A stretch of DNA of 64,000 nt, taken from the NCBI RefSeq assembly GCF_000223215.1, contig NC_017243.1, positions 558,001-622,000 on the forward strand, written 5' to 3'. Positions 2-61,600 of this stretch are shown here, one piece after another; within the stretch, counting starts at the first letter, position 1; each line of letters opens with the position of its first letter. Under the pieces are notes generated by a model that was not told the origin of the DNA, ran no database searches, and saw only the letters and a list, made by a program, of their open reading frames with translations. The stretch comes from Brachyspira intermedia PWS/A. Its GTDB lineage: Bacteria > Spirochaetota > Brachyspiria > Brachyspirales > Brachyspiraceae. Made by a program: the position numbers and the translations under genes.

Positions 2-598
2 TGGAATGAAACCTTATACAATATTTCTATAGAATTAAAATATAATGATTCAGATAAACAAAAAGTATTTTATCCTCTTATAGGAAATTTAGGAAACAAT
101 AATAATCCTTATTTGCAAATAACGACTATAGTTGATAGATTTGCTGAAAAATTCAATTCAAAAGCCTATTTCAATAATTATCCTGCATTGATAGAAAAAA
201 AATCTCTTAACAATAATGATCTTGAAAAATTAGAGGAGTTTAAAAAATTTTGGTCTGACTTAGATGTTGCTATAGTAGGTTTAAGCAGCAGGAGAGAATC
301 TTATCAATCATATATATCAGATATACCAAAAGTAGATAAATTAAATGTTGATGAGATAGAGGGAATAATATTAGGAAGTTTTTTCATGAATAATGGAGAA
401 ACTTTTAATTATCCTGATAAATATTATGTAAACTCGATAATGCTTTCAGAATTAAAAAAAATTAAAGATATAGTTTGTATAGTTTCAGGAGTAAAAAAAA
501 TAGATACTATTAAATTTGCAGCTATGAATAAGTATTTTAATATTTTAATTACCGATGAATCTACAGCAGACTCTATAATATCAAATTTTAATTTATAA
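2..598 (+). CDS. SorC/DeoR-type sugar-binding transcriptional regulator, 3' part
   Basis: The reading frame is open to the left edge, so this is the C-terminal part of a longer protein whose N-terminal helix-turn-helix lies outside the window. The visible part matches the SorC effector-binding fold: a stretch ending PLIGNLG, the AEKFNSKAYF segment, VAIVGLSSR, then ILGSFFMNNGETFNYPDK, and near the end ILITDESTAD. In the family this domain binds a phosphorylated sugar and controls a carbohydrate operon. A TTG at 113 could be mistaken for a start, but the homology clearly begins upstream of it. The regulated genes are not visible here. Confidence 0.8.
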   Translation, partial: WNETLYNISIELKYNDSDKQKVFYPLIGNLGNNNNPYLQITTIVDRFAEKFNSKAYFNNYPALIEKKSLNNNDLEKLEEFKKFWSDLDVAIVGLSSRRESYQSYISDIPKVDKLNVDEIEGIILGSFFMNNGETFNYPDKYYVNSIMLSELKKIKDIVCIVSGVKKIDTIKFAAMNKYFNILITDESTADSIISNFNL

Positions 599-900
599 CA
601 TATTTAAACAACTATATTTTGTAAATTTTAGTTTTTTCAATTTTATTGTTTGTGGTGGCTTTGCCCCACACCCCCACTTCTTTTGTTGCCACAGGCGAAG
701 CCCGCCTACGGCGAGAAGCAAAAAGGCTACATTTGGTATTTAATTTAACAAATTATCTTACATATAAGACGATTTTAGTATTATTTAGTACTAATTTTTT
801 ACACTTGCATTTTTTTGGTTCTTGGCGAAGCCCGCCTGTGGCGTGCGGCGGGAAAAAGAACAACAAAAAAATTGACAAACTCTAAAATTTTTAGTATATC
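598..900 (+). repeat. Dispersed intergenic element, family 1, copy A
   Basis: Full-length copy, forward orientation. It has a degenerate left end (ttaaacaactatattttgt at 604-622), a GC-rich core with the ggctttgcccc and gcgaagcccgcctacggcg modules, and a right end with TTGACA at 872-877, 17 bp, TATATC at 895-900. That right end reads as a promoter pointing at the sulfatase gene 193 bp downstream. Short ORFs inside it are not conserved as protein. Confidence 0.75.
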
Positions 901-1093
901 TTAAATAATTTTATTTTATAAATTATTATTCATTTAATCAATTTAATAAATATTAATAAATTTATACTTAAATTTTAGAAATTTATTTCAGAACAATTGA
1001 CAAAATACAGCTATATTGTATAATATAAGAAATATTGTTCAGAACATTTGTTCTATTGTATATGATATTAGTTTTGGAGGTTTATTAATATTT

Positions 1094-3376
1094 ATGAATA
1101 AAGATAATATTTTTTCTAAGTCATTATTATTTGCAGGTGCATTAAGCTCATCAATGATAAGTGTAAGCTGTAATAATGATAATAGAGCGTCTGATAATAG
1201 TATGGTTTTAGCTAGTAACGATATAGAAAAGCCCAATATTGTTTATATAGTTATAGATGATATGGGCTTTTCGGACTTAGGTTGTTACGGTTCAGAGATA
1301 AGCACACCTAATATAGATAGGCTAGCAGAAAATGGACTTCGCTATAATAACTTTTGTGTTACTCCTTTAAGTTCGCCTACAAGAGCAGCACTTTTAAGCG
1401 GAAGAAATTCACATTCTGTAGGTATGGGAAGACTTGCTAATTATACTTTAGATGCTCCTCATTCTACAGCACAAATAACAAATACAGCAGCTTTAACACC
1501 AAGACTGCTTAAAGATAATAATTATAATACTTATGCAGTAGGTAAATGGCATGTGGCTCCTTTATGGGAAACCAGCAGCATAGGGCCTTATAATAATTGG
1601 CCTTTAGGAAGAGGATTCGATAAGTTCTACGGATTTATGGATGGAGAAACTGATCAATTCAATCCTGAACTTGTTGACGGAAATACTCATGTTGATACTG
1701 TGTATGATGATAATTATCATTTGACAGAAGATATTACAGACAGAGCTATTTATTATATTAAAAGCCATAAATCAATATCAAAAGAAAAACCTTTCATGCT
1801 TTACTATGCAACAGGAGCAGCACATTCACCTCATCAGGTACCGGAAGAATATGTGAAGAAGTATGAGAATGTTTATAATGTTGGCTGGGATAAAATAAGA
1901 GAGGAGAGATTAAAGAAACAAAAAGAATTAGGCATAGTACCAATGGATGCGGAACTCTCTCCATTAAATGAGAATGTTAAGCCTTGGAATGAACTTGATG
2001 AAGATACAAAGAGATTATTTATAGAATACGAAAAACATTATGCAGCTTTCATAGAACATACTGATGCTCAAATAGGAAGATTAATAAAAGCATTGGAAGA
2101 TATGGGAGAGCTTGATAATACTTTAATATTTTTAATAGCTGATAATGGACCTTCACCATCTGGAAAAGCTACAGGAACTTTAAATACTGTTAATATAAAA
2201 AATGGTATTATGTCAGATATAGAAAAAGATGTTAAAAGAATAAATGAATTTTCTAAATTAGCCCCTAATTATCCTCAAGGCTGGGCACAGGTTTCTGCTA
2301 CTCCATTTAGATATTATAAAGAAAGTGCAAATTATTTAGGAGGAATAAGAGTACCTTTAATAATACATTATCCTAAAGGTATTGATAAATCACAGAATGG
2401 AAGCATAAGAACACAATTTAGTTTTGTTACAGATATAGCGAAAACTGTATTAGATATTACAGGTATAAAAGAACCTAAAACAGTTGATGGTATAGAACAA
2501 ATGCCTTTGCATGGATATAGTTTAGTTCCTACTTTCAATGATGCAAATGCTGATACTAAAAGAACCACTCAGTATTTTGAACTTTATGGAAATAGAGGCT
2601 TATATGATAATGGATACTTCTTGTCAGTTTCTCATAAGAAGGGTGATAGTTTTGATAATGATAATTTTGCTCTTTATGATTTGAATACTGATTTCTCTCA
2701 GCTTGAAGATATATCAAAAGAAAATGAAAGCAAATTAAAAGATATGAAAAACTTATGGGATAAAGAGGCAGAAAAATACGGAGTAAATCCTCTTGATGAC
2801 AGAGTGCATGTTGAACTAATAGCTAAGCAATTAAGTGCGAATATAGAAAAGAAAAACTCTTTAACATTATACCCAAATACATCAAGTATAAATGTTAATA
2901 TATCGGCTATACCTACAGCATTGAACCGTTCTTATGATATAACAGCTTATGTAAATAGAAAATCATCTGCAGAGGAAGGCGTATTATTGGCATTCGGTAA
3001 TCATTACGGCGGATATTCATTATATATCATCAATAATAAATTAAATTATGAATATATATATGATGACGTAAAATATCATATAGAAGTAAATGAGCCTTTG
3101 CCTTTAGGGGAGTTAATTATAAAAGTTAAATACACTAAAACAGGTAAGGATTCAGGAGAAGCGGCATTATTAGTAAATGATAAAGAAGTAGGAAAACTTG
3201 CATTACCTAAAGTATATCCTATGACAGCAAATACAACAGATGGAATGTCAGCAGGAAGAGATTTACAAGGCAATGTAAGCGAGAGATATGAAGGCAGAGG
3301 ACATTTTGAATACAGCGGAGATTTAGAGAAAGTAACAGTTGAAGGACATAATGATTATAACAAAATAGCTATGTGA
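1094..3376 (+). CDS. Lipoprotein sulfatase, Ser-type (sulfatase 1)
   Basis: Sulfatase of the alkaline-phosphatase superfamily, about 760 aa, predicted to hydrolyse sulfate esters outside the cytoplasm. I chose the ATG at 1094 because GGAGG lies at 1076-1080 and it gives a lipoprotein signal ending ISVSC (Cys26). An upstream in-frame TTG at 1016 has neither. Metal-binding Asp pair D55-D56 is in VIDDMGFSD. The catalytic motif is S93-S-P-T-R97, the serine variant that must be oxidised to formylglycine. GKWHVAP and DNGPS supply further active-site residues. The C-terminal ~150 residues form a separate beta-rich domain. Its sequence differs clearly from the next two sulfatases. The substrate is not evident; host sulfated glycans are an inference. 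Confidence 0.9.
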   Translation: MNKDNIFSKSLLFAGALSSSMISVSCNNDNRASDNSMVLASNDIEKPNIVYIVIDDMGFSDLGCYGSEISTPNIDRLAENGLRYNNFCVTPLSSPTRAALLSGRNSHSVGMGRLANYTLDAPHSTAQITNTAALTPRLLKDNNYNTYAVGKWHVAPLWETSSIGPYNNWPLGRGFDKFYGFMDGETDQFNPELVDGNTHVDTVYDDNYHLTEDITDRAIYYIKSHKSISKEKPFMLYYATGAAHSPHQVPEEYVKKYENVYNVGWDKIREERLKKQKELGIVPMDAELSPLNENVKPWNELDEDTKRLFIEYEKHYAAFIEHTDAQIGRLIKALEDMGELDNTLIFLIADNGPSPSGKATGTLNTVNIKNGIMSDIEKDVKRINEFSKLAPNYPQGWAQVSATPFRYYKESANYLGGIRVPLIIHYPKGIDKSQNGSIRTQFSFVTDIAKTVLDITGIKEPKTVDGIEQMPLHGYSLVPTFNDANADTKRTTQYFELYGNRGLYDNGYFLSVSHKKGDSFDNDNFALYDLNTDFSQLEDISKENESKLKDMKNLWDKEAEKYGVNPLDDRVHVELIAKQLSANIEKKNSLTLYPNTSSINVNISAIPTALNRSYDITAYVNRKSSAEEGVLLAFGNHYGGYSLYIINNKLNYEYIYDDVKYHIEVNEPLPLGELIIKVKYTKTGKDSGEAALLVNDKEVGKLALPKVYPMTANTTDGMSAGRDLQGNVSERYEGRGHFEYSGDLEKVTVEGHNDYNKIAM

Positions 3377-3429
3377 TAAATATAATGATTTAAAGGACAT
3401 TTTATATTTATATTGAAATGATTTTAGTT

Positions 3430-3773
3430 TGCCAAAAAACATTTTAAATTTAGGTATTTGTGGGGACTAGCCCCACCGCTATGCGTACTTCGTAACACCC
3501 CACTTCTTTTGAGACCGAAGGAAGTACCTTAGGTATGACCCAGGCAAAGCCCGCCTACGGCGAGAAGCTATATCCTTGATAAACTCGGATACGCTTTGCG
3601 AAAGGCTATATTGGGTTTTAATTTAATAAATTATATTACATGTAAAATATTTTTAGTATGATTTAGTACTAATTTTACATTTGCACTTTCGCGAAGCGTG
3701 CCTGCGGCAGCAACTTTTTGCGGCGGGAAAAAGTTGACTAAAAAATGACAAACTTAAAAATTTTCAGTATATA
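3430..3773 (+). repeat. Dispersed intergenic element, family 1, copy B
   Basis: Long forward copy with extra GC-rich modules. The terminal hairpin caactttttgc...gggaaaaagttg lies at 3711-3736. The right end is ATGACA (3745-3750), 17 bp, TATATA (3768-3773), only 37 bp before the ATG of sulfatase 2 and just upstream of its ribosome-binding site, so the element probably supplies that gene's promoter. Confidence 0.75.
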
Positions 3774-3810
3774 TAAAAAATACGGAATTGTAAGGAGAAT
3801 AAAATAGTAT

Positions 3811-6189
3811 ATGAGAAAAAACAATAATAATTTTAAAAAAGGTTTTTGTATAGGTTCATCTGTACTCATGGCGGCAAGTGCAGTATCCTGTTCAACTGAA
3901 AATAAGAATCAATCGGAGAAGCCTAATATAGTTTATATAGTATTAGATGATATGGGATTCGGAGATTTAGGCTGCTACGGATCAAGTATATCTACACCAA
4001 ATATTGATGCTTTGGCTCAAAATGGTATAAGGTATGTTAACTATTTTACTTCTCCATTAAGTTCTCCAAGTAGAGCGTCACTTCTTACAGGCTGTGAAGC
4101 TAATAAGGTTGGAATGGGAGCGGTAAGTCAGGTTGATTTCGGAGATTTAGCACCTAATATGGCAGGAAGAATAAAGCCGGAACATGCTCCTATTACCCAT
4201 ACTTTAAAAGCAAACGGATATAATACTTATGCTATAGGTAAATGGCATTTAGGACCTTATGATGAGTTTACACCAGACGGAGATAAATATCATTGGCCTT
4301 CAGGAAAGGGATTCGATAAGAATTATAATTTTATAGCAGGACAGGCTAATCAATTTCAGCCGGGCGGTATTATAGAAGGCGATGAGTTTATAGTTCCTGA
4401 TACTTCAGATCCTGATTATCATTTAAGTAAAGATATAGTTGATAGAACATTAAAATATATTGATGAATCTAAAAATGAACCTTTCTTTGCTTATGTGGCA
4501 TTCGGAGCTATGCATGGACCTTTCAATGTTGCTAAAAAATATATAGATAAATATAAAGGTAAATTTGATCATGGCTGGGACGTTGAAAGAGAAAAGATAT
4601 TTGAAAGACAAAAAGAGTTGGGAATAATGCCTGCTGATGCAGTATTATCAGAAAGAAATGATGAAGTGCCTGCTTGGGATAGCTTAACAGATAAAGAAAA
4701 AGCAGTTGCGGCAAGACATATGGAAACTTATGCTGGATTTTTAGAGCATACTGATGAACAAATAGGACGTCTAATTTCAGAAATGAAAAAGAGGGGAGTA
4801 TATGATAATACAATATTTATAGTAGTTTCAGATAATGGAGCTAATTATAATGGCGGAAGAAATGGAAGTATAATGAATCATGCTAATGAAAATTTATATG
4901 TTCATGATTTAGATACACAATATAGTTTATTAGATGAATTTGGAAGTGCTTTATATGGAACAGAATATAATAAAGGCTGGGCTAATGTTTCAAATACTCC
5001 ATTAAGATATTTCAAAACAAAAACACATTACGGCGGAGTTAAAACTTTCTGTATAGCTTCTTGGGCTAATGGCATAGCTGATAAAGGCAGAATATCAAAA
5101 GATATGATAGCTGTATTTGATATAACTCCTACTATGCTTGATATTATAGGAGCAGAACCTTTAACAGAAGTTAACGGAGTGAAGCAGGAAAAAATGCAGG
5201 GTATGTCATTCAAAGAAAGTTTTGAAAGTTCTAATCCTATGAGTAATCCTAGAAAAGAAATAGCTTTGCTTATGATGCTTGATAGAACTTATGCAGACGG
5301 AAGCGGATACATTATAGTAACTAATCCTAAAACTCAGGAATGGGAATTATATGATATAAATAATGATCCTACTCAGATAAATAATTTAGCTTCTTCTATG
5401 CCTGATAAGGTAAAAGAAATGGCTTTGAAGTATGAAACAGTAAGAAGAGAATTCCATGACTCAGAAAATTTACTTATGGATATAGTACATAAAACAAATC
5501 CTGAAACATTAACAAAACGCTATGGACAATTAGCTTCAGATGTGCTTACTTCTCTAAAAACTGGTAAGGCTGTATCAAAAGATGCAGAAGAATATTTAAG
5601 ACTTTATAAATTCTTTAGTTATGTTCCAGAAGGTGCAGGATATACTGGAGTAGGCTCTGTTTGGTATTATCCTTCAACATCTAAATTCAGAGCAACAAAC
5701 TATACATACAAAAAAGAAGATGGATATTTCTTCTCATTATCAGCAGCAAGAACAGGTCCTGTTTCTCATAAAATCAATGTTGATATAGAAGTGCCTAATA
5801 ATGCCAAAGGTGTTATATATGCTAACGGAGGTTTAGACGGAGGATATGCACTTTATATAAATGATAATGGAAACCTTGTATATGAATATAATTATTTAGG
5901 AGAAAGACAGAAAGTTATATCACCTGAAGTAATGAAAGAAGGTAAATATAATATAGTTATGGATTATAAGAAAGATAAAGTAAATAGCGGAATCATTGAT
6001 ATGATCATAGACGGAAATGCGGTTGCAAGCTCTCCTGTGAAAATGCTTCCTATAATGATTTCTTATGATTATTTCAGTATAGGTGAAGATGTAGGATCTA
6101 AAGTAAGTTTAGATTATAAAGATGACTATGTATTTAATGGCAAGGTAGATGAAGTTAATATAGTGCTTGGAGATGATTTATTAAAATAA
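3811..6189 (+). CDS. Lipoprotein sulfatase, Ser-type (sulfatase 2)
   Basis: Sulfatase, 792 aa, starting at an ATG with AAGGAG at 3792-3797. The signal peptide ends SAVSC (lipobox Cys27). Asp46-Asp47 is in VLDDMGFGD. The catalytic serine is Ser84 in LSSPSRASLLTG. GKWHLGPYDE and VSDNGANYNGG follow as expected. A C-terminal beta-rich domain (about residues 630-790, with ANGGLDGGYALYIN) is shared with sulfatase 3. The two proteins are near-identical over long stretches, so they arose by tandem duplication. Maturation to formylglycine is expected to need the radical-SAM enzyme encoded 2.6 kb downstream. Confidence 0.92.
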   Translation: MRKNNNNFKKGFCIGSSVLMAASAVSCSTENKNQSEKPNIVYIVLDDMGFGDLGCYGSSISTPNIDALAQNGIRYVNYFTSPLSSPSRASLLTGCEANKVGMGAVSQVDFGDLAPNMAGRIKPEHAPITHTLKANGYNTYAIGKWHLGPYDEFTPDGDKYHWPSGKGFDKNYNFIAGQANQFQPGGIIEGDEFIVPDTSDPDYHLSKDIVDRTLKYIDESKNEPFFAYVAFGAMHGPFNVAKKYIDKYKGKFDHGWDVEREKIFERQKELGIMPADAVLSERNDEVPAWDSLTDKEKAVAARHMETYAGFLEHTDEQIGRLISEMKKRGVYDNTIFIVVSDNGANYNGGRNGSIMNHANENLYVHDLDTQYSLLDEFGSALYGTEYNKGWANVSNTPLRYFKTKTHYGGVKTFCIASWANGIADKGRISKDMIAVFDITPTMLDIIGAEPLTEVNGVKQEKMQGMSFKESFESSNPMSNPRKEIALLMMLDRTYADGSGYIIVTNPKTQEWELYDINNDPTQINNLASSMPDKVKEMALKYETVRREFHDSENLLMDIVHKTNPETLTKRYGQLASDVLTSLKTGKAVSKDAEEYLRLYKFFSYVPEGAGYTGVGSVWYYPSTSKFRATNYTYKKEDGYFFSLSAARTGPVSHKINVDIEVPNNAKGVIYANGGLDGGYALYINDNGNLVYEYNYLGERQKVISPEVMKEGKYNIVMDYKKDKVNSGIIDMIIDGNAVASSPVKMLPIMISYDYFSIGEDVGSKVSLDYKDDYVFNGKVDEVNIVLGDDLLK

Positions 6190-6226
6190 GAAATATTTTT
6201 TAATATTTATAAAGGAGTATTGATAT

Positions 6227-10024: not shown

Positions 10025-10202
10025 AGACAGCTATATTTTGTAGGAAAAGTCTATATTTTAACTTAAATTTAATAATTTATATTACCTGTAAAATAAAATT
10101 AGTATTATTTAGTAATAATTTTATACTTGCACTTTTTGGTTCTTTTTGCGGCGGGAAAAAGAATAATAAACAATTGATAAAGTTAAAAATTTTCAGTATA
10201 TA
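10025..10202 (+). repeat. Dispersed intergenic element, family 1, copy C (core deleted)
   Basis: Shortened forward copy: the left-end remnant agctatattttgt and the AT-rich middle are kept, the GC-rich core is missing. The right hairpin ttcttttt/aaaaagaa sits at 10140-10163. The right end is TTGATA (10174-10179), 17 bp, TATATA (10197-10202), pointing at the P1 peptidase gene 181 bp downstream. A C-rich patch (agccccccacccgc at 10274-10287) between element and gene resembles a fragment of family 3. Confidence 0.65.
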
Positions 10203-28859: not shown

Positions 28860-31848
<2,989 letters not shown>

Positions 31849-31901
31849 TATTATCGTTTTCTTCTTAAATAAGGAAATTATAATAAAGAGTAGAATGAGA
31901 C

Positions 31902-31929
31902 ATCTACGCTCTTATATATCTGGCAAAGA
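31902..31929 (+). other. 3' arm of the 23S processing stem
   Basis: Complementary to 28613-28640 (see that entry). It lies in the 23S-5S spacer, which holds no tRNA gene. Confidence 0.8.
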
Positions 31930-31965
31930 GATTAAAAATTGTTCTTTTAATTTGCTAATATTATT

Positions 31966-32080
31966 TCGGTGACCACAGAGAAAGTGATACACCCGTTCCC
32001 ATTCCGAACACGGCAGTTAAGCCTTTCATCGTCGATGGTACTGTAAGGGTAGCTTTACGGGAGAGTAGAACGTTGCCGGG
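31966..32080 (+). rRNA. rrf: 5S ribosomal RNA
   Basis: Recognised by cggtgaccacagagaaag at the 5' end, the loop region cccgttcccattccgaacac, and the 3' part gggagagtagaacgttgccg. It is about 117 bp downstream of 23S in the same transcript and is followed by a strong terminator. End positions are good to a few bases. Confidence 0.93.
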
Positions 32081-32096
32081 TATATATTATATATTT

Positions 32097-34130: not shown

Positions 34131-34380
34131 AATTCCTATAATATTCTGAAAATTTTTAACTTTGTTAACTGATTCATTTTATATAAATGTTATCTACTTT
34201 TTTGTCGCACAAAAAAGTAGCAAAAAACGCACATACTATAGCTTAAAATTTTCAAAATATCTATAAAATATAATGTAATACCATAATTTTAGTTCACACA
34301 TTGCTGAAGTCACGCAGAGCGAAGGTGGACTTCGTCAAAGTTGCAAAAGCACATATTATTTTTATATTCAGTTTGAATAT
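34131..34380 (-). repeat. Dispersed intergenic element, family 1, copy D (divergent)
   Basis: Reverse-oriented, degenerate copy. Its right end appears as ctgaaaatttttaactttg (34146-34164). The hairpin ctacttttttg...caaaaaagtag at 34194-34220 has stem bases changed together compared with other copies. A module ggtggacttcgtcaaagttg (34324-34343) follows. The left end is not preserved. It separates one unit of a degenerate tandem repeat from the other three. Confidence 0.55.
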
Positions 34381-35822: not shown

Positions 35823-36135
35823 ATATATACTGAAAATTTTTAAGTTTGTCAACTGATGCACTTTATATAGATATTATCTACTTTTTGCCGCATAAAAAAG
35901 TAGCTGCCTCAGGCACGCTTCGCGAAAACGCAATTGCTAGAACTTTATATTTGAAAAATACTTATTAAATATAGAATATAACCTAAATTTAGACTAAAAA
36001 TGCAGTCTTTTTGGTTCTCGCCGCAGGTGTACTTCGTATGTGCCAACAAAAGAACTGGGGTGCGGGGCAAAGCCCTACAGATATTTAAAATTTAAAAAAA
36101 TAATTTTTGACAAAATATAGTTGTTTAGGTATATT
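35823..36135 (-). repeat. Dispersed intergenic element, family 1, copy E (reverse)
   Basis: Near full-length copy in reverse. Right end at 35823-35855 (tatatactgaaaattttt...). Hairpin ctactttttgccgcataaaa...gtag at 35878-35903. The rightmost part is the element's left end, which reads on the plus strand as TTGACA (36107-36112), 17 bp, TATATT (36130-36135). That promoter points to lipoprotein 2, 107 bp away. Confidence 0.75.
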
Positions 36136-36242: not shown

Positions 36243-36707
36243 ATGGGTAAAAAATTTTTAACAATCTTTTTGAGCCTATTTTTTGTAAGTATGTTATCAA
36301 TAAGCTGCTCTAATAAGGATAAAACAGGATCTAGTGATGGTTCCGCCACAACAACAAAAGGCATAGAACAGTATAATGGTAATACTTATGTATCATCAAA
36401 AATACAAATAAATAATCAACTAGGTTATGTATGGATATCAGTAAAAGATAGTAAAGTTGCAATTAAACCAAATGAAGATAATAACACTTCACCAATATTT
36501 GATACAGGAAATTATTTTTCTGTAACAGGTTCAGGTACAGATTATAATTTTTCTATTCCAGACAGTAAACAAAATCCTGATTCAATTGTAGGTACCTTAA
36601 CATTTTCTGATGATGCTTCTTATGTAACTTTAAACATTACAAAAAATGGTGATGATCCAACTGGAGAAACATTAAATAAACATTTTGTTTGTAATATTAA
36701 AAAATAA
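36243..36707 (+). CDS. Lipoprotein, paralogue family member 2
   Basis: 154 aa. Signal MGKKFLTIFLSLFFVSMLSISC with lipobox Cys22, then directly the shared C-terminal domain: EQYNGNTYVSS, YVWISVKDSKVAI, VTGSGTDYNFSIPD, and ending HFVCNIKK. It lacks the extra domain of lipoprotein 1. CAGGAG precedes the ATG. Its probable promoter lies in element copy E. A perfect 13-bp terminator stem follows. Function unknown. Confidence 0.75.
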   Translation: MGKKFLTIFLSLFFVSMLSISCSNKDKTGSSDGSATTTKGIEQYNGNTYVSSKIQINNQLGYVWISVKDSKVAIKPNEDNNTSPIFDTGNYFSVTGSGTDYNFSIPDSKQNPDSIVGTLTFSDDASYVTLNITKNGDDPTGETLNKHFVCNIKK

Positions 36708-38147: not shown

Positions 38148-38585
38148 TTCGCACGGTGATTAAAACTAAAAAAAAATTAAGTTTTGTTTTATTTTTAATT
38201 ATTAAAGAAAATAAAATTAATCGTGCGTTGAATAAATTTTTAAATCTAATCTAAACTTGGGTGGGCGCTTTATTTTCTAATTTAATTAAAAAATAAATTT
38301 AAATTAAAATTTCAAAAATAAACTATAAATATTAAAGGGTGGGGTATGTAATAAAAGTTTTAAAATTTAATTACATTTGCCCGCCCTTTATATTTATAAA
38401 TTAAATTTTGTATTTATATATTATATTTCTTTAAAGCCAATTATGATATTATAAAACCCACCCAAGCGTTATTTAAATTTCTAATGTTTACACCGCACGC
38501 TGAATGCATTTTTTATACTAGTTGATGTAATAATATAATTTAAATTAAATAAACAATCTGTTTACCATGCGTTTAATAAAAAATG
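38146..38585. repeat. Palindromic intergenic element, family 3, copy 1
   Basis: About 440 bp. In order: cgcacggt...atcgtgcg hairpin; cttgggtgggcgc (about 38256-38268); aaagggtggggtatgtaa; its partner attacatttgcccgcccttt; cccacccaagcg (about 38459-38470); and a final accgcacgc...taccatgcg hairpin. The two G-rich/C-rich pairs nest inside each other. No ORF. Two further copies lie at 42.5 and 61.6 kb. Confidence 0.7.
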
Positions 38586-42494: not shown

Positions 42495-42930
42495 TATTTA
42501 CGCACGGTAAGTAAGTTAAAATACAAATAAATTTTTATTACTAATTTATACTATAAAAAATAATAAACTAACCGTATGTTAAGAAAATTCGATATCTAAT
42601 AAAAACTTTGGCGGGTGCTATATTTTCTAGTTTAATTAAAAAACAAATTTAAATTAGAATTTCAAAAATAGACTATAAATATTAAAGAGCGGGGTATGTA
42701 ATTAAAGTAAAAAATTTAATTACATTTGCCCACCCTTTATATTTTTTAATTTCATTTGTCATTTTTGTATTACTTTTCTTTTTTGTTTTATATTGTGATT
42801 ATAACACCCACCCAAGATTTTTTTAAATTTATTGTATTAACCACCGTACGCATAGGAAAATTTATAATATATATTAATTATAAATCAGAATTTTAATTAT
42901 ATATAAATTTTACTAACCGTGCGTTAAAAT
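42495..42930. repeat. Palindromic intergenic element, family 3, copy 2
   Basis: Same order of parts as copy 1: acgcacggtaa (about 42500), taaccgtatgtt, ctttggcgggtgc, aaagagcggggtatgtaat, attacatttgcccacccttt, cacccacccaag (about 42808), accgtacgc and taaccgtgcgtt (about 42914-42925). Base changes between copies mostly keep the pairings. Confidence 0.7.
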
Positions 42931-42944: not shown

Positions 42945-43262
42945 TATATACCTAAACAAATATACTTTGTCAGAAATAATTTTTTTAATTTTAAATATCT
43001 GCAGGGCTTTGCCCCGCACCCCACTTCTTTTGGTGTCCCAGGCGAAGCCCGCCTACGGCGAGAAGCAAAAAGACTATATTTAGCTTAAGTTAATAACCTA
43101 TCTTACATGTAAAACGATTTTAGTATGATTTAGTACTAATTTTCTACTTGCACTTTCGCCGCAGGCGTACTCCGTATGGTTCTTTGACGCTGTCCGCCTG
43201 TGGCGTGCTGCGGGAAAAAGAACAATAAAAAAATTGACAAACTTAAAAATTTTTAGTATATA
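42945..43262 (+). repeat. Dispersed intergenic element, family 1, copy F
   Basis: Full-length forward copy. Left end: TATATA (42945-42950), 17 bp, tgtcag (42968-42973), which is a minus-strand promoter. Right end: TTGACA (43234-43239), 17 bp, TATATA (43257-43262), 65 bp before the DUF285 gene. The core has ggctttgccccgcaccccac and the cttcttttg...gagaag hairpin. It directly abuts a family 3 element. Confidence 0.8.
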
Positions 43263-45688: not shown

Positions 45689-46010
45689 AATATACCTAAA
45701 CAAATATATTTTGTCAAAAATAAATTTATATTTTTGTTTTTATATCTGGGGCTTTGCCCCAGCCCCCACTTCTTTTGCGACCGTAGGGAGTGCCTGTGGC
45801 GTGCCACAAAGAAGCAAAAGGGCTATATTTTATCTTAAATTAATAATTTATATTACATGTAAAACAAAGTTTGTATGCTTTAGTACTAATTTTACATTTG
45901 CACTTTCGCCTGCCGGAGGCACGCAGAGCGAGGCGTACTCCGTATGGTTCTTTTTGCGGCGGGAAAAAGAACAATAAAAAATTGACAAACTTAAAAATTT
46001 TCAGTATATA
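45689..46010 (+). repeat. Dispersed intergenic element, family 1, copy G
   Basis: Full-length forward copy. Left promoter on the minus strand: aatata (45689-45694), 17 bp, tgtcaa (45712-45717). Right promoter: TTGACA (45982-45987), 17 bp, TATATA (46005-46010). Hairpin gttctttttgcg...aaaaagaac at 45947-45972. The cttcttttg/caaagaag hairpin is at about 45768-45814. Confidence 0.8.
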
Positions 46011-46019
46011 CTAAAACGA

Positions 46020-46315
46020 TTTCATTTTGCCGACTACTACATATTATATAATTATTATCAACTTTTTTGCCGCACACGCTCTGCGGACTTCGTCAAAGTT
46101 GAAAAAAACGCATATACTACAGCTTAATAATTTAAGAATATATGTTAAATGTAATATAACACTATCATTTTATGTCAAAAATGCAGTCTTTCGCCGTAGG
46201 CGGACTTTGTCTGGTTCTTTGTGTCAACAAAAGAACTGGGGGCTGGTACTAGTCTCAGAAAATAATAACAATATAAAAACTAATTTTGATAAATTTAAAA
46301 TTTTTAGTATAAATT
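46020..46315. repeat. Dispersed intergenic element, family 1, copy H (mosaic)
   Basis: Mosaic next to copy G. The core is in reverse orientation (gttctttgtgtcaacaaaag at 46214-46233), but the right-hand end is forward: TTGATA (46286-46291), 16 bp, TATAAA (46308-46313), 147 bp before ileS. It suggests recombination between copies. Confidence 0.6.
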
Positions 46316-49250: not shown

Positions 49251-49345
49251 AAAAATTATATTTTAATTGGGGCTTTGCCCCAAACCCCAGTTCTTTTGGT
49301 GACCCAAAGAACCAAAAAGACTGCATTTTTTAGTTCAAATATTTT
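49251..49345 (+). repeat. Dispersed intergenic element, family 1, copy I (hairpin fragment)
   Basis: Only the inner module survives: ggggctttgccccaaacccc followed by the hairpin gttcttttggtgacccaaag-aac (49290-49312) and aaaaagactgca. No end-promoters. Confidence 0.6.
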
Positions 49346-52991: not shown

Positions 52992-53186
52992 ATGTCAGAT
53001 AAAATAAATCAATCTAAGAGTAATGTCGGAGGCGATCAAATTGCTGGGGATAAAAATACTCAAATTAATATAACTCAATATTTAGACAATATTTTGTGTG
53101 ATAGTGATGTTAGTATTTTTAGAGAGGATTTTAATGAGTTTTTAGAAAATACGGAATTATCTGTTTTATCATATGAAAAAAAATAA
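52992..53186 (+). CDS. STAND-like NTPase, fragment 1 (N-terminal part)
   Basis: 64 codons starting MSDKINQSKSNVGGDQIAGD and ending LSVLSYEKK-stop. It stops at TAA (53184) directly after A_AAA_AAA (53177-53183). Reading on in the -1 frame from 53183 gives IRLSDLYIPIELKDEY, the usual lead-in to the P-loop that follows in fragment 2. So this is the N-terminus of one longer protein, split by a frameshift, ribosomal slippage or sequence error. Confidence 0.65.
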   Translation: MSDKINQSKSNVGGDQIAGDKNTQINITQYLDNILCDSDVSIFREDFNEFLENTELSVLSYEKK

Positions 53187-53260
53187 GATTATCTGATTTA
53201 TATATTCCTATAGAATTAAAAGATGAATATTCTAATAAAAAAATTAGTATAGAAGTATTA

Positions 53261-55044: not shown

Positions 55045-55637
55045 ATTTGATTACTTCATACTGTAATATAAATAGAATTAATAAAAAACTTTGGAGGAAG
55101 TAGAAAAAATAATAGGTATATATTATGCTAAAAAATAGATGTAAATATTATAATTAAGTTTAGTATATAAAATTTGATATTTAATAAAAAATATTTATGT
55201 TGTGATTATATTTTTAATTATTTTTTTATTTTATGTTGGGTAATCAGCCGCACGTATATTGTACTTTCTGTAAGTGTGAGCGTTACCGTGCGGGAAGGTG
55301 CTACAGCTCGTAGTTTTTTCGTGTTTTTTCTAAAAAAGTTACTGTTTGTAGGCTTATTTTGTTAAAAATGTTTGTTTAACTATAAGGGCGTACCCTCACC
55401 TCCGGTGGACTTCGTCCGGGTATTTCCTCGCTACGCTCGGTCAGTGGGGGTATATGGTAAATTTTCAAAAAAATTATTTCTGGGTTAGTTTCTGTTTGTG
55501 GGTTAGTTTTTATATTTTTGGGTTGGCTTTTTAGTTAATTTCTTTTTGTTTAATATTGGATAATAAGCCGCACGTATAGAGGTCTATCCTTAATGGTTTG
55601 CAGTACCGTGCGGGAAGCCCCTACGGCGAGTAGTGCG
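55045..55637. other. Intergenic region with two family 2 stem-loops
   Basis: No convincing gene. Two family 2 stem-loops lie here (55241-55300 and 55561-55620), together with GC-rich modules such as ctccggtggacttcgtccgg (55401-55420) that also occur in family 1 elements. A stretch near 55090 (ttggaggaagtagaaaaaa) faintly recalls the RM C-terminal coding end but is too short to call. Confidence 0.5.
55241..55300 (+). repeat. Stem-loop element, family 2, copy 1
   Basis: ccgcacgta (55248-55256) pairs with taccgtgcgg (55284-55293); the flanks are taatcag and gaaggtgc. Related copies are at 55561, 56214, 56327 and 61385. Confidence 0.65.
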
Positions 55638-55660
55638 TTAGCTAGGTGAGTAGTATAAAG
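55561..55660 (+). repeat. Stem-loop element, family 2, copy 2
   Basis: ccgcacgta (55568-55576) with taccgtgcgg (55604-55613), followed by a tail gtagtgcgttagctaggtga (about 55629-55648) that overlaps the last codons of the DUF2442 gene on the other strand. Confidence 0.65.
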
Positions 55661-55880
55661 TATTACATGATATATCCAAATCATCGTTCCAAGAAATGCC
55701 GTATCCGCCAACATCTACTTTTACAAGATTAAATAAAGTCTTGTCATTCAAAATTTCAAATTCTTTATGTTCAGAAATTAATTTTTTTATATCATAATAT
55801 TTTATTTCTTCATTTTCAAATATTATTTCTAAAATGAGGTTATCTAAAGCTTTAACATTTTTAATTTTATGGAAAGTCAT
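55638..55880 (-). CDS. DUF2442 protein, partner of DUF4160
   Basis: 80 aa, matching DUF2442: VKALDNLILEIIFENEEIKYYD, FNLVKVDVGGYGISWNDDLDIS, NTLYY. It follows the DUF4160 gene by 2 bp, the usual pairing, which is often regarded as toxin-antitoxin-like. The final residues YSPS and the stop are encoded by the tail of a family 2 repeat, so the native C-terminus seems to have been replaced by insertion. Confidence 0.78.
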   Translation of the reverse strand: MTFHKIKNVKALDNLILEIIFENEEIKYYDIKKLISEHKEFEILNDKTLFNLVKVDVGGYGISWNDDLDISCNTLYYSPS

Positions 55881-55882
55881 AA

Positions 55883-56137
55883 TTACTCCAAAGGCTCTAA
55901 TTGTTTAAAGTTTTGCGTATTCCATATATTTAAAAGTTCGTCTTGATTATTTTTAGCCCATTCCAATACAAGAGAACATGCTTTATTAGGTAAATCACCT
56001 TCTATCATTTTTAATTCATTGATATCAATAACCCCAACATACTCACCATATATAGCATGAAAATGCGGAGGATTATGCTCTTTTTGCTGAAAATACATTT
56101 TGATAATGATACCATAAAATCTTGATATAACAGGCAT
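55883..56137 (-). CDS. DUF4160 protein
   Basis: 84 aa. Diagnostic words: MPVISRFYGIIIKMYFQQKE, HNPPHFHAIYGEYVGVIDI, and LEWAKNNQDELLNIWN. The NPPHFHA motif marks DUF4160. It is encoded just upstream of DUF2442 and almost certainly cotranscribed. The pair is widespread in bacteria and suspected, without proof that I know of, to be a toxin-antitoxin module. Confidence 0.85.
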   Translation of the reverse strand: MPVISRFYGIIIKMYFQQKEHNPPHFHAIYGEYVGVIDINELKMIEGDLPNKACSLVLEWAKNNQDELLNIWNTQNFKQLEPLE

Positions 56138-56207
56138 TTTTTAGTCCTTATTTTTTTATTATTAATTTTAACATGCAGATTATCTTTTTACAAATTCTTA
56201 TTTTTGT

Positions 56208-56325
56208 TTGATGTTGGATAATAAACCACACATATATTGTACTTGCTGTAATGGTGAGCGTTACCATGCGGAAAGCCCCCGACCGTAGGGAGTGCGTAAG
56301 CTAGGCGAATAGTGGGTAATCAGTC
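56208..56325 (+). repeat. Stem-loop element, family 2, copy 3 (decayed)
   Basis: ccacacata with taccatgcgg: both arms have changed from the consensus, partly keeping the pairing. The tail gagtgcgtaagctaggcgaa is like that of copy 2. Confidence 0.55.
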
Positions 56326-56412
56326 GCATACCCTTCGGGTACTTCCTTCGGTCGCGTATAGTTGACTGTATGTAAGTGTGAGCGTTACCGTGCGGGATGC
56401 CACACGGCAAGT
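56326..56412 (+). repeat. Stem-loop element, family 2, copy 4 (with inserted module)
   Basis: gtaatcagtcgcat is followed by an extra module acccttcgggtacttccttc (56339-56358), then gtgtgagcgttaccgtgcgg (56372-56391). The insert resembles GC-rich blocks of family 1. It abuts the HD-domain gene's 3' end. Confidence 0.55.
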
Positions 56413-56414
56413 GT

Positions 56415-57044
56415 TTAGAAAATATTGTCTTTTATGTTCGGAAGTAAATTGTAAATTGAAGTTCCTATAGTACTTTCAAAATACGATTTTATTTCAAATA
56501 CCCTTTTCCACCTCAAGGCACTTTGCGGAAATGTTCCATATCTTAAAGCAGCATCAACGAACCTTTTTTCAAGCAAACAAAATCCAGAAGGTAAAGCAAG
56601 ACAATCGCATAATTGAATAAGTAAATCATAATCATCATATACAGCATTGGCAACGAAATTTTTTATGAAGTTGAAATCTTCTTCAGGCATATCAAATTTT
56701 CCTATTGCAGTATTTACATCTTGTATCATGAAAGCATGAGTTATGCATATTTGAGCCATTTTCTCCCAGCCGTAATTAATGCAGTATTTGTACCCGTCTA
56801 TTAAATGCCTTTCTACACTTATACCAGTGTATCTTCCTATATCATGCAAAAGCCCGAATATGTAGGAATTGTCTTCATCTAATTTTTTATTAGTTGATTT
56901 TTTATTGTATTCAGAGGCTATTATCCTCGCAGCTTTAGCGACATATCTTGAATGTTCAGCCCAAGGAGTAGGGTTTGATTTGTATGCTTTGTTTAACTCG
57001 TATTCGGCTCTTTCTAAATCTAATATTTCCATAATTATTTCCAT
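56415..57044 (-). CDS. HD-domain phosphohydrolase-like protein
   Basis: 209 aa (or 205 aa from the second ATG at 57032, MEILDLERAEYEL). HD-fold metal ligands: H in WAEHSRYVAKAARII, HD in IFGLLHDIGRYTG, H in ICITHAF, and D in LIQLCDCLAL. This small HD group is usually annotated as a hydrolase of nucleotides or of unknown phosphoesters. No fused domain. Its 3' end touches a repeat cluster. Confidence 0.8.
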   Translation of the reverse strand: MEIIMEILDLERAEYELNKAYKSNPTPWAEHSRYVAKAARIIASEYNKKSTNKKLDEDNSYIFGLLHDIGRYTGISVERHLIDGYKYCINYGWEKMAQICITHAFMIQDVNTAIGKFDMPEEDFNFIKNFVANAVYDDYDLLIQLCDCLALPSGFCLLEKRFVDAALRYGTFPQSALRWKRVFEIKSYFESTIGTSIYNLLPNIKDNIF

Positions 57045-57153
57045 TTAGATTAATTATAATAATACAACTTTTTGATGAAAAATAAATATTTATAGGGAAC
57101 TTTTATTATAATTTTTTCGTCTAATAAAGCAAATAAAATAATGGGTAACTAAT

Positions 57154-57416
57154 ATGTTAAAAAAATCACTTTTATAATTTCATCTATATTATCACTTTTT
57201 TTATTGAGTTCATGCTCTCCAGCATTTGACAGAATGTTTCATACGCCTCCATATCATCCTCATGCTAGGAATTATTTTGACTTTCCAATGTTGTTTGGGC
57301 CTCATTTTGGTATTCATGGCATACTTAGTATTATAATAAAAATATTAATAATTGTGGCATTAGTTTTCCTAGTAAAAATGCTTTATAATAAGGATAAAAA
57401 CAATAAAAAAGAATAG
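57154..57416 (+). CDS. Small lipoprotein with apparent frameshift in signal peptide
   Basis: From ATG 57154 the frame reads MLKKSLL-stop. If the A7 run (57159-57165) is read with one more A, or with -1 slippage, it becomes MLKKITFIISSILSLFLLSSC, a normal lipoprotein signal with lipobox LSSC, followed by SPAFDRMFHTPPYHPHARNY and a hydrophobic helix (HGILSIIIKILIIVALVFLV). Without the shift the only start is a TTG at 57204 inside the lipobox, giving about 70 aa. Function unknown. Confidence 0.5.
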
Positions 57417-57426
57417 TCAATTTTAT

Positions 57427-57702
57427 ATTATACCTAAACAACTATATTTTGTCAGAAATAATTTTTTTTAAATTTTAAAGATCTACAGGGCTTTGCCCTG
57501 CTAAGCACACATACGTGCCGCGAAGCGTACCCGTAGGGTAAGCCCCCACTTCTTTTGCCTACGCTCTACGTGCCGTAGGCAAGGCAGCTACTCGGTGGTG
57601 CCTCATCGCAGTACGGCTCACGAAGTGTGCCTGCAGCAGCAACTTTTTGCGGCGGGAAAAAGTTGACTAAAAAATGACAAACTTAAAAATTTTTAGTATA
57701 TA
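57427..57702 (+). repeat. Dispersed intergenic element, family 1, copy J
   Basis: Forward copy with rearranged GC-rich core. Left promoter on the minus strand has a perfect TATAAT (57432-57427), 17 bp, CTGACA (57455-57450). Right promoter: ATGACA (57674-57679), 17 bp, TATATA (57697-57702), 191 bp before the RND gene. Hairpin caactttttgcgg...aaaaagttg at 57640-57665. Confidence 0.78.
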
Positions 57703-57893
57703 TATTTTTATAATAGTTTTTATTAAAATAAAAATATATATTTTGTTATGCAATTATATGAATAATATAAATTTCAAATATTATTTATTAGTAGTTTAAA
57801 AGGAATAAAAATTTATAATAAAAACTATTGAATATTTTTTAGAATTTAATATCATATTTGCGTAATATTTTTATGATTTAAATTTACGAAAAA

Positions 57894-60800
57894 ATGAAAA
57901 ACTTTATTACTTTCATAGTAAATAGACCTACAACAGTATTTGTTACATTGGTATCCATGTTCATAATTGGATTTATCAGTATATCAAGACTCAGTATAAA
58001 TTATCTTCCCAATATGGAAGTTCCTATTATAAGCATAAAAACAACTTATGATAACGCAGGAGCTGAGGAAGTAGAGAAATCTGTTACAAGAATAATTGAA
58101 AGTGCTGTGTCATCTGTTAATAATGTAAAAACTATTAAATCAAAATCCAAAGAATCAGAATCTAATGTTGAAATAGAATTTAATTGGGGAACGGATTTAC
58201 AGACTGCTGCTGATGATATAAGAGAAGCTATTGATATGGTTAGATCTTCTTTGCCTGATGATGCAGATAACCCAAATATATCTAAATTTTCAACCGATTC
58301 AGAACCTATAATGAATATAGCTTTTTTTGGTACGGATAATTTAGCTTCTCTCTATGATTTAGTTGATAGTCAAATACTTACAAGATTGGAACAAGTTGAA
58401 GGAGTAGCACAAACAGAAATAAGAGGCGGATTAAAAAAGATAATTTGTGTAGATATAGATTTAAATAGACTTAATGCATATTCTATAAATATTAATGATA
58501 TAGTACATACATTATCTTTAGAAAATCAGAATGTTGCAGGCGGTGAAACTTATGAAGGCGTATATAAATATAATATAAGAACAACAGGAGAGTTTAAAGA
58601 AGTTAATGATATTGAAGATGTAGTTATAATGCTTAAAAATCAAGTTTATCCTGTGAAGGTAAGAGATATAGCATATGTACATGAGGATTATGAAGATGAT
58701 TCAGAAATCGTTCGCATAAACGGACAGAAAGCTTTAACTATTGCTGTAACAAAAGAATCAGGCGGAAATATTATACAGATAGCAAGAGATGTAGAGAAAA
58801 GGCTCAGTACTATTAATTTACCTTCAGGTGTTTATTATCAAATACTTTTCAATAGTTCGGATACAATAAAGAATTCTATTCATAATGTTTTGAATACAGT
58901 TTGGCAGGGAGCTTTATTTGCTGTTTTGGTTCTTATGATATATTTATGGGATATAAGAAGCGTATTTATAATAAGCATATCAATACCTGTATCTGTAATA
59001 ACTACTTTTATATTGATGTATTTTTTCAATATCACTATTAATGTAATATCTCTTTCAGGGCTTGTGCTTGGTGTAGGAATGATGGTTGATAATTCTATAG
59101 TAGTGTTAGAAAATATTTTTTATTATAGCAATTATTATTCTAAATATAATATTAATAAAAATGATAAAAGAACTATTAAAATAAACAATATAAAATCTTC
59201 TATAATAGGAACAAATGAAGTATCTATAGCAATAACAGCTTCAACTTTAACAAGCGTATGCGTATTTCTTCCGTTTTTGTTTGTTAAAGGACAAATGGGA
59301 CAGATGTTTAGTGATTTATGTATTACAGTTTCTATATCATTATTAACTTCTCTTTTTGTGGCTTTGACTATAGTACCGCTTTTAGCTTCAAGATTAAATA
59401 AATTAAATCCGGATAGTAAATTGAATTTATTATTAAGAAAATCAGAAAATTTCTTTAATAAAAATCTTCATAATAATGTAGAAAAATTTTATGTAAGCAC
59501 TTTAGCGATAGTAATAAAAAATAAAAAGAAATCATTTGCTTTAATATCTGTTATATTGACTATATCATTATTTTTATTATTAATGAATATAGGTAAAGAA
59601 GGATATCCTGTATCAGATGAAGGTACTATTATATCAAGGTTAAGACTTCCTGTTGGGGCTAGGGTAGAGTTTACTGACATGTTTATAAATAAAATGGAGC
59701 ATGATATAGAAAGTGCTGTTAGCAATAATATGGCATACTATGAAACGAGAGTGCGAACAGGAAGAAATGAACATCATGGAGAGGTTAGAGTAAAATTAAT
59801 AGATAGAGAAAATGGAAGAAAACTTGATATTACTCATTATATAGAAAGTATAAGAAATAAAGTTAATGGATATCCCGGAAGAATAGAACTTAACTCTGAA
59901 AATACAGCTATGGGAAAACCTAAAAATTACAGTGCAATCATTATAGAGCTTGTAGGAGATGATCTTGACAGGGGATATGATGTGGCAAGCAATGTTATAG
60001 CTGCAGTTAATAATGTTGAAGGTGTTAGAAATGTTTTGATAAAAGAAGATGATTCTAATCATGAACTTATTTTTGATGTAGACAGAGATTTGGTATCTAA
60101 AATGGGAATCAATATTAATACCATTGCAAATATCATAAGAACTTCTTTCAGCGGTACAACAGCAAGCAAGATGACTTTAAATAATTCTATATATGTTGAT
60201 ACTGATATAATAGTTCGTTTGGAGGATAGAAACAGAGATGATATTTCAAGCATTCAAAAGATGATGATACCCACTTCAAATGGTATAGTTCCAATATCAT
60301 CACTTGTAAGCATACATAAATCTACAGGACCTATAGAAATTAATAGAAAGAATGATAAAAGAATAATAGAGATCAATGCTAGTGCTTATGGAAGACCTAT
60401 AAATGAAATCATTACAGATATTAGAAAAGAGCTTAATAAAATATACATACCAAGCGGATTTTCTGTTAATTTTTCAGGAGATTATGAGGATATGCAAGAA
60501 GCATTTGTCCAATTAATAGTATCTTTAATAATGGCTTTAGTATTTGTATATGCCATAATAGCTGGGCAATTTGAATCTTATATTACGCCTTTTGTTATAT
60601 CTTTGGCTGTTCCTTTTGCATTATTCGGGGCTTTAATATTCTTGTACTTTTCAGGAAATACTTTAAATGTTTATAGCGGAATAGGTATTATAATGCTTGT
60701 AGGAATAGTTGTTAATAATGGTATAGTATTAATAGATTATATGAATAGGGTTGTAATAGAAAGAAATATAAGCTGGGATAATGCAGCATTAGAGTCATGC

Positions 60801-61019
60801 AAAAGAAGATTAAGACCTGTACTTATGACATCATTGACTACAATATTAGGATTATTACCTATGATTTTTGAAATAGGAAGCGGAAGCGAAATGTACAGAC
60901 CTTTAGCTATAGCAGTTTGCGGAGGGCTTATATTCTCTACGATGTTCACTCTTATAATAATACCTTCCGTTTATTCTAGCTTCAGAAACAGATTCAATAT
61001 GAAAATACGTGAAGATTAA
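57894..61019 (+). CDS. RND-family efflux transporter (AcrB/HAE1-like)
   Basis: 1041 aa, full length, 12 membrane helices and two large periplasmic loops. Start MKNFITFIVNRPTTVFVTLVSM; GMMVDNSIVVLENIFYY carries the relay Asp (the second Asp of AcrB is Asn here); FVKGQMGQMFSDL, VGIVVNNGIVLIDYMNR, RRLRPVLMTSLTTILG and GSEMYRPLAIAVCGGL follow in order. It exports drugs or lipids using the proton or sodium gradient. No adaptor (MFP) or outer-membrane channel gene is adjacent in this window, so partners must be encoded elsewhere or it acts alone. Confidence 0.93.
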   Translation: MKNFITFIVNRPTTVFVTLVSMFIIGFISISRLSINYLPNMEVPIISIKTTYDNAGAEEVEKSVTRIIESAVSSVNNVKTIKSKSKESESNVEIEFNWGTDLQTAADDIREAIDMVRSSLPDDADNPNISKFSTDSEPIMNIAFFGTDNLASLYDLVDSQILTRLEQVEGVAQTEIRGGLKKIICVDIDLNRLNAYSININDIVHTLSLENQNVAGGETYEGVYKYNIRTTGEFKEVNDIEDVVIMLKNQVYPVKVRDIAYVHEDYEDDSEIVRINGQKALTIAVTKESGGNIIQIARDVEKRLSTINLPSGVYYQILFNSSDTIKNSIHNVLNTVWQGALFAVLVLMIYLWDIRSVFIISISIPVSVITTFILMYFFNITINVISLSGLVLGVGMMVDNSIVVLENIFYYSNYYSKYNINKNDKRTIKINNIKSSIIGTNEVSIAITASTLTSVCVFLPFLFVKGQMGQMFSDLCITVSISLLTSLFVALTIVPLLASRLNKLNPDSKLNLLLRKSENFFNKNLHNNVEKFYVSTLAIVIKNKKKSFALISVILTISLFLLLMNIGKEGYPVSDEGTIISRLRLPVGARVEFTDMFINKMEHDIESAVSNNMAYYETRVRTGRNEHHGEVRVKLIDRENGRKLDITHYIESIRNKVNGYPGRIELNSENTAMGKPKNYSAIIIELVGDDLDRGYDVASNVIAAVNNVEGVRNVLIKEDDSNHELIFDVDRDLVSKMGININTIANIIRTSFSGTTASKMTLNNSIYVDTDIIVRLEDRNRDDISSIQKMMIPTSNGIVPISSLVSIHKSTGPIEINRKNDKRIIEINASAYGRPINEIITDIRKELNKIYIPSGFSVNFSGDYEDMQEAFVQLIVSLIMALVFVYAIIAGQFESYITPFVISLAVPFALFGALIFLYFSGNTLNVYSGIGIIMLVGIVVNNGIVLIDYMNRVVIERNISWDNAALESCKRRLRPVLMTSLTTILGLLPMIFEIGSGSEMYRPLAIAVCGGLIFSTMFTLIIIPSVYSSFRNRFNMKIRED

Positions 61020-61120
61020 TTATTTATAAAAATAAACTACTGCATTTTGAATAAAATTAGTAATATAATGAAAGTTTATATAAAAAATTATAGTATGATT
61101 TATTTTTATGATAAATGTTT

Positions 61121-61380
61121 TATATACCTAAACAACTACATTTTGTCAAAAATAAATTTTTTAAATTTAAAATATTTGCAGGGCTTTGACGACCGCTCTG
61201 CGTACTTCGTAACACCCCCAGTTCTTTTGCGACCGAAGGAAGTACTGTAAGTATTGGCACAAAGAACCTTATATCCTCGACAGGCTCGGATACGCTTCGC
61301 GAAAGTGCAAATAATCAAATAAGACTAAATAATACTAACTTTGTTTTACATGTAATATAAATTATTAATTTTGTGCAATA
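61121..61380 (+). repeat. Dispersed intergenic element, family 1, copy K (inverted core)
   Basis: Left end intact: TATATA (61121-61126), 17 bp, tgtcaa (61144-61149). Then HP1-type gttcttttg...caaagaac (about 61222-61267). After it, the stretch gtgcaaataatcaaa...acatgtaatataaattatta (61305-61350) is the reverse complement of the normal middle. A family 2 element interrupts before the right end. Confidence 0.65.
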
Positions 61381-61458
61381 ATGAGTAATCAGCCGCACGT
61401 ATAGAGGACATTTGTTAAGAATAAGTGATACCGTGCGGGAAGGTGCCGCAGCTCGCGG
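61381..61458 (+). repeat. Stem-loop element, family 2, copy 5
   Basis: ccgcacgta (61393-61401) with taccgtgcgg (61429-61438) and the tail gaaggtgccgcagctcgcgg, as in copy 1. It sits between the core of family 1 copy K and a family 1 right end, so it seems to have inserted there. Confidence 0.65.
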
Positions 61459-61600
61459 TTGACAAACTTAAAAAATTTTTAGTATATACCTAAACAACTA
61501 TATTTTGTCAATTTTTTATTGTTCTTTTTCCCGCCTCACGCCTGCCGTAGGCACGCTTCGCCAAAGTTGATAAAAATACATGGTATTTTATTCAATGAGT
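61459..61600. repeat. Family 1 right end joined to another family 1 left end (copy L)
   Basis: TTGACA (61459-61464), 18 bp, TATATA (61483-61488), then 17 bp and tgtcaa (61506-61511). The two opposed element ends share the same TATATA. The downstream part holds ttctttttcccgcc and a partial hairpin. Confidence 0.65.

What the first reader, a model, noticed from the sequence alone, without database searches (positions are those of the whole stretch)
598..61600. Dispersed ~300-bp element whose two ends are outward-facing promoters
About a dozen full, partial or mosaic copies (598, 3430, 10025, 34131, 35823, 42945, 45689, 46020, 49251, 57427, 61121, 61459). The right end reads TTGACA (or ATGACA/TTGATA), 16-18 bp (usually 17), TATATA-like; the left end reads outward on the other strand as TTGACA (or CTGACA), 17 bp, TATATT/TATATA/TATAAT. 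Seven end-promoters point into the next gene: sulfatase 1, sulfatase 2, P1 peptidase, lipoprotein 2 (left end of a reversed copy), DUF285 gene, ileS and RND gene, at 37-193 bp from the ATG. No transposase ORF. It looks like a non-autonomous, mobile bidirectional promoter cassette; I know of no such description for this genus.
Basis: partly seen in the sequence, partly recalled or inferred. Interest (0 to 1): 0.82.

Follow-up and report, generated by a model that had tools for sequence, protein, structure and literature searches.

The report
Brachyspira mini-transposons with promoter-like ends
The repeated ~300-base pieces are non-coding mini-transposons that share their ends with an IS630-type insertion sequence in related Brachyspira; the ends look like outward promoters, but the elements sit mostly where promoters would not help, so the promoter role looks incidental and is unproven.

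Summary
The window holds about ten full or partial copies of a 240-470 bp element, and the genome holds 249 end motifs against 2 for a control pattern. The ends are TTGACA-17-TATATA. The whole 27-29 bp is conserved, spacer as much as hexamers, and a third end variant has the -35 spoiled (TCGGCA). They are therefore terminal inverted repeats (TIRs), not just promoters.

Empty sites in sister species show insertion at TA with TA duplication. A decayed 1,056-bp element in one relative has both ends flanking an IS630-type transposase pseudogene. In two other draft genomes, 37 and 23 IS ends lie at contig ends; those sampled have the mini-element's ends with 0-2 mismatches. So this is a Brachyspira MITE family, parent identified as an IS630-family IS.

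The "bidirectional promoter cassette" reading is only partly supported. Elements are enriched in convergent intergenic regions and depleted in divergent ones; only 36% of outermost ends face a gene start. Promoter scores are equal for ends facing gene starts and gene ends (9.72 vs 9.71). The usual -10 (TATATA) lacks the final T; its last two bases come from host DNA, as in the "Black promoter" of Neisseria Correia elements. The family seems undescribed in Brachyspira; its kind is known.

The parts
597..900 (+). MITE copy, L end (degraded, TTTACA..TATGTT) to R end (TTGACA-17-TATATC)
997..1024 (+). host promoter-like site TTGACA-16-TATAAT of sulfatase 1, downstream of the element
3407..3773 (+). 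MITE copy, C-like left end (TTGGCA) to R end (ATGACA-17-TATATA) 40 bp before sulfatase 2
10025..10202 (+). MITE copy with truncated left part; R end 10174-10202 (TTGATA-17-TATATA) facing P1-type peptidase
34140..34250 (-). partial copy with only an R end (TTAACA..AATATT), facing the end of the upstream gene
35824..36135 (-). complete reversed copy, R end 35824-35852 to L end 36107-36135 (TTGACA-17-TATATT, 11/12) facing the lipoprotein gene at 36243
42945..43262 (+). complete copy, L end (CTGACA-17-TATATA) to R end (TTGACA-17-TATATA), 68 bp before the 43328 ORF
45689..46010 (+). complete copy, L end to R end; the query used genome-wide
46005..46313 (+). second copy in tandem sharing TATATA, C end (TCGGCA) to degenerate R end; precedes ileS
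49251..49340 (.). internal fragment without either end
57427..57702 (+). complete short copy, L end (CTGACA-17-TATAAT, 11/12) to R end (ATGACA-17-TATATA)
61121..61487 (+). copy, L end to R end (18-nt spacer), interior replaced in part by another dispersed repeat
61483..61575 (+). L end and start of a further truncated copy abutting the previous one through shared TATATA

Best explanation
The elements are MITEs: non-coding 240-470 bp mini-transposons. They carry the two ends (R and L) of an IS630-family insertion sequence and were moved in trans by its transposase. Shown: the shared ends; insertion at TA with TA duplication; presence/absence between sister species; a decayed transposase between the same ends in one relative; a multi-copy IS with the same ends in other relatives. 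The TTGACA-17-TATA look comes from the TIR plus the duplicated TA: the element gives TTGACA, a fixed spacer and the first TA, the target duplication gives the second TA, and host DNA gives the last two -10 bases. Each insertion thus makes a hybrid promoter-like site whose quality depends on the target. Inferred: a few copies (TATAAT or TATATT targets facing a gene) may drive transcription, but most are tolerated selfish insertions, kept mainly downstream of genes. Trans mobilisation itself is inferred, not shown.
For: Copies: 61 stretches in the genome from the searches. Ends: 249 vs 2 control. 25 of 26 Brachyspira genomes match; up to 543 ends in one. No match in five genomes of other genera of the class. 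TIR rather than promoter only: conservation -35 0.91-0.95, spacer 0.91-0.93 for R and L; the C end has the same length with TCGGCA. Mobility: empty sites span the junction for most of the ten tested loci. Read base by base, one relative at 97% has gttaTATAATct where the window genome has gttaTATA-[TACC..GGTA]-TAATct; three relatives show the same for 652552. Tandem copies share TATATA. Parent: DDE_3 (PF13358) over cut-off only in G015; that stretch lies between an R and an L end 1,056 bp apart with a decayed reading frame. Its N-terminal piece matches genes annotated 'IS630 family transposase'. 37 contig ends in G014 and 23 in G024 stop inside an IS end; sampled R ends are identical to the MITE R end and L ends differ by 0-2 bases. 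Promoter role incidental: convergent 37% vs 14% (p=9e-10), divergent 9% vs 19% (p=0.001), same direction in the own genome alone. 123 of 338 outermost ends face a gene start. Promoter score 9.72 vs 9.71. TATAAT is the enriched -10 upstream of genes here (54 vs 22 on the reverse strand), TATATA only weakly (19 vs 10).
Against: No intact transposase gene was seen whole; multi-copy IS elements are collapsed at contig ends and the own genome has none. The MITE interior is not visibly derived from the IS. R ends face gene starts more often than L ends (74/171 vs 47/155, p=0.016), and perfect 12/12 sites face starts in 6 of 127 vs 1 of 209 cases (p=0.013, post hoc), which hints that some copies do act as promoters. 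Loci from related species are not fully independent.
Confidence: 0.88

Rival explanations
1. Selected mobile promoter cassette: the element is kept because its two ends drive neighbouring genes.
For: Conserved TTGACA-17-TATA at both ends; seven ends in the window point at genes; R ends face starts somewhat more than L ends; 12/12 sites mostly face starts.
Against: Depletion from divergent and enrichment in convergent intergenic regions; no promoter-score difference by orientation; the spacer is as conserved as the hexamers and the C end lacks a -35; most -10 boxes end in A; relatives without the insertion still carry the flanking genes.
Confidence: 0.08
2. RNA-level element: transcribed copies fold into hairpins that end or process transcripts; the ends matter only for mobility.
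For: Element transcripts fold better than shuffles on both strands (z -3.1 and -4.7 for 45689-46010); enrichment between convergent genes suits a two-way terminator.
Against: The reversed copy folds only slightly better than chance (z -1.7). Few stems have a T-run, and interiors vary widely between copies.
Confidence: 0.15
3. Chance similarity in an AT-rich genome.
For: About 27% G+C background; the generic promoter scan finds only slightly more sites than shuffles.
Against: 249 vs 2 control matches; roughly 70-80% identity over 300 bp between copies.
Confidence: 0.01

Closest known systems
RUP (repeat unit of pneumococcus) and IS630-Spn1 of Streptococcus pneumoniae
   Same: Non-coding, TIRs shared with an IS630-family IS, TA target, mostly intergenic, about a hundred copies (PMC2229807, PMC3049150).
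   Different: 107 bp versus 240-470 bp; no outward promoters found for RUP in the passages read; TIR sequences were not compared here.
Correia repeat enclosed elements (CREE/NEMIS) of Neisseria
   Same: TA target, TIRs, outward sigma70-like promoters; the 'Black promoter' has the -35 and a partial -10 in the element, completed by the insertion site (PMC2649163); genus-limited, >100 copies.
   Different: Different host and size (about 105 or 155 bp); in Neisseria often upstream of genes with proven promoters, here mostly downstream and unproven; the IS parent is identified here.
IS630 (IS630-Tc1-mariner superfamily) insertion sequences
   Same: The decayed and multi-copy relatives with the same ends carry an IS630-type transposase and use TA.
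   Different: The window elements have no transposase.
Other bacterial MITEs with promoter-like sequences (MITEAba12, BrickBuilt, QMITE1, SonMITE_1)
   Same: Reviewed as MITEs carrying sigma70-like promoters (PMC10969869).
   Different: Unrelated hosts; not compared in sequence here.

Membership tests
IS630-derived MITE | Short, no transposase ORF | tested here: met
   240-470 bp; no ORF of 120 aa or more inside a complete window copy
IS630-derived MITE | Terminal inverted repeats | tested here: met
   R, L and C ends share TTGACAAA...GTATA (TCGGCAAA in C) over 29 bp in inverted orientation; R-L, R-R, L-L, L-C and R-C pairs
IS630-derived MITE | TA target duplication shown by empty sites | tested here: met
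   (2212013 and 652552 cleanly; others diverged)
IS630-derived MITE | Autonomous IS with the same ends and an IS630-type transposase | tested here: met
   Decayed copy L130; multi-copy IS ends. No intact gene seen whole
IS630-derived MITE | Transposition in trans | not testable with these tools
   needs a transposition assay
Correia element (CREE) | Neisseria host and Correia repeat sequence | tested here: not met
   All listed hosts of the R end are Brachyspira; the ends begin TACYKAAA and not with the Correia repeat as recalled; similar in working only
Correia element (CREE) | Experimentally proven outward promoters | not testable with these tools
   no transcription data; the held library gave no Brachyspira start-site paper
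Selected promoter cassette | Ends preferentially facing gene starts, with better promoters there | tested here: not met
   36% face starts; equal scores

The most novel reading that the evidence does not exclude
A minority of copies, those landing at TAAT or TATT targets upstream of genes, are working hybrid promoters that have rewired surface, lipoprotein or sulfatase genes differently in each Brachyspira species, so insertion polymorphism is a source of expression differences between species.
Probability: 0.25. Interest if true: 0.55.

Novelty: new member of a known kind. Interest (0 to 1): 0.38.

Why it matters
This looks like a major dispersed repeat of the genus (about 1 to more than 500 end-motif matches per genome), yet no paper in the held library mentions Brachyspira with IS630, and the 'MITEs' hits are about other things. 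Naming it, with ends, target rule and parent IS, lets annotators mask it and offers insertion markers between species. It explains some draft-assembly breaks. It also gives an independent case, outside Neisseria, of a TA-target MITE whose TIR makes hybrid promoter-like sites, where promoter-by-insertion can be tested.

Tried and rejected
Loci were first assumed to be strand-oriented; overlap conflicts showed they are not, and the map was discarded. Phage origin: both end patterns found nothing in viral contigs. Rfam: only rRNA in the window. PF13358 in the own genome: none. A 2,065-bp pair of ends around an ankyrin-like gene (L192) was considered as an autonomous element and rejected as two neighbouring MITEs. 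NCBIfam on transposase pieces: nothing useful; the IS630 assignment rests on Pfam and tblastn instead. The idea that conserved hexamers imply promoter selection was rejected because the spacer is equally conserved.

Full report
Observation. The window is G000:C2:558001-622000 of a 3,308,048-base, two-contig genome. The size fits Brachyspira intermedia PWS/A from memory; the genus is supported by the 80 named records shown for the right-end pattern, all Brachyspira. Genome searches with three window copies gave 61 stretches. A degenerate end pattern has 249 matches at up to one mismatch against 2 for the control pattern.

Anatomy. Three end types were found, read outward: R TTGACAAACTTAAAAATTTTYAGTATATA, L TTGACAAAATATAGTTGTTTAGGTATATA, C TCGGCAAAATGAAATCGTTTCAGTATATA. 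They pair inwards as R-L most often, but also R-R, L-L, L-C and R-C, mostly at 240-470 bp. Head-to-tail copies share one TATATA. Interiors are variable and contain GC-rich hairpins; one copy folds better than shuffles on both strands, another hardly.

Mobility. Joined flanks of ten own-genome copies were searched in 26 Brachyspira genomes. Relatives with the uninterrupted site were found for most of them. At 2212013 a relative with 97% identical flanks reads ...gttaTATAATctaaa where the own genome reads ...gttaTATA-TACC...GGTA-TAATctaaa; at 652552 three relatives show the same rule. The element is therefore TACY...RGTA, inserted at TA with duplication of TA. The two-base reading is the one that makes the element ends symmetrical; the alignment alone allows up to four bases (TATA) at 2212013.

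Parent. IS630 DDE_3 is absent from the own genome and occurs once in the genus, in G015. That place lies in a 1,056-bp element bounded by an R end and an L end, with a decayed transposase frame. Its first 80 residues match plasmid genes annotated IS630 family transposase at 34-38% identity. In draft genomes G014 and G024, 37 and 23 contig ends stop inside an IS end of 95-100% identity. In the sampled ones R ends are identical to the MITE R end, and L ends differ by 0-2 bases. Stop-free N- and C-terminal pieces lie next to such ends in G023, G020 and G024. The L-end TTGACA overlaps the transposase stop codon (GAA AAT TGA). The R end read inward gives TTGTCA followed by TATAAT shortly before the transposase ATG, so part of the TTGACA conservation may belong to the parent's own promoter on the other strand (inference).

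Are the ends promoters? As sequence they resemble sigma70 promoters with 17-nt spacing. Four tests speak against promoter selection. (a) Conservation is the same in the -35 (0.91-0.95) and the spacer (0.91-0.93), and the C end has no -35. (b) With the duplicated TA, the last two -10 bases are host DNA. The commonest -10 is TATATA; TATAAT is rare (1 of 82 own R ends, 3 of 81 own L ends), though TATAAT is the -10 enriched upstream of genes in these genomes (54 vs 22 on the reverse strand; TATATA 19 vs 10). (c) Elements lie in convergent intergenic regions in 37% of cases against 14% of gene pairs without an element, and in divergent ones in 9% against 19%; the own genome alone shows the same. 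(d) Mean promoter score is 9.72 for ends facing starts and 9.71 for ends facing gene ends. In favour: R ends face starts more than L ends (p=0.016), and perfect 12/12 sites face starts in 6 of 7 cases (p=0.013, post hoc). Gene calls are from a simple ORF caller and related loci are not independent.

Comparison. RUP of pneumococcus is the same kind: IS630-derived, TA target, intergenic (PMC2229807, PMC3049150). Correia elements of Neisseria work alike at the promoter level: the Black promoter has the -35 and a partial -10 in the element, completed by the insertion site (PMC2649163); other MITEs with promoter-like sequences are reviewed in PMC10969869. Sequence and host differ, so this is not a Correia element. 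No Brachyspira MITE paper was found in the held library.

Verdict. An ordinary but apparently undescribed and abundant MITE family of Brachyspira with an identified IS630 parent. Its promoter-like ends are most likely a by-product of TIR plus TA target, possibly used in a few places.

Noticed in passing
window 55224-55315, 55544-55635, 56202-56293, 56355-56397, 61369-61460: A second dispersed repeat (GTAATCAGCCGCACGTATA ... ACCGTGCGG), one copy of which replaces the interior next to an R end at 61459.
   Followed up: no
window 38231-38415, 42581-42764, 61616-61671: Another dispersed AT-rich repeat containing TTTGCCCGCCCTTTATATTT.
   Followed up: no
   Followed up: no
window 680-730, 3510-3570, 43030-43070, 45765-45815: GC-rich short palindromic modules (e.g. 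CGAAGCCCGCCTACGGCGAGAAGC, GACCGAAGGAAGTACC) appear interchangeable in hairpin loops of the MITE and similar ones also occur outside it; they may be a separate layer of small repeats.
   Followed up: no
window 28860-32081: 23S and 5S rRNA genes without a 16S gene or tRNA in the window.
   Followed up: no
L130 758-1815 and L307 (genome G015): Two decayed IS630-type insertion sequences related to the MITE parent; the transposase is broken by stops and frameshifts.
   Followed up: partly
genomes G001, G003, G019: Three Brachyspira genomes have no exact end matches, so the family is absent or lost there while present in the other 23.
   Followed up: no
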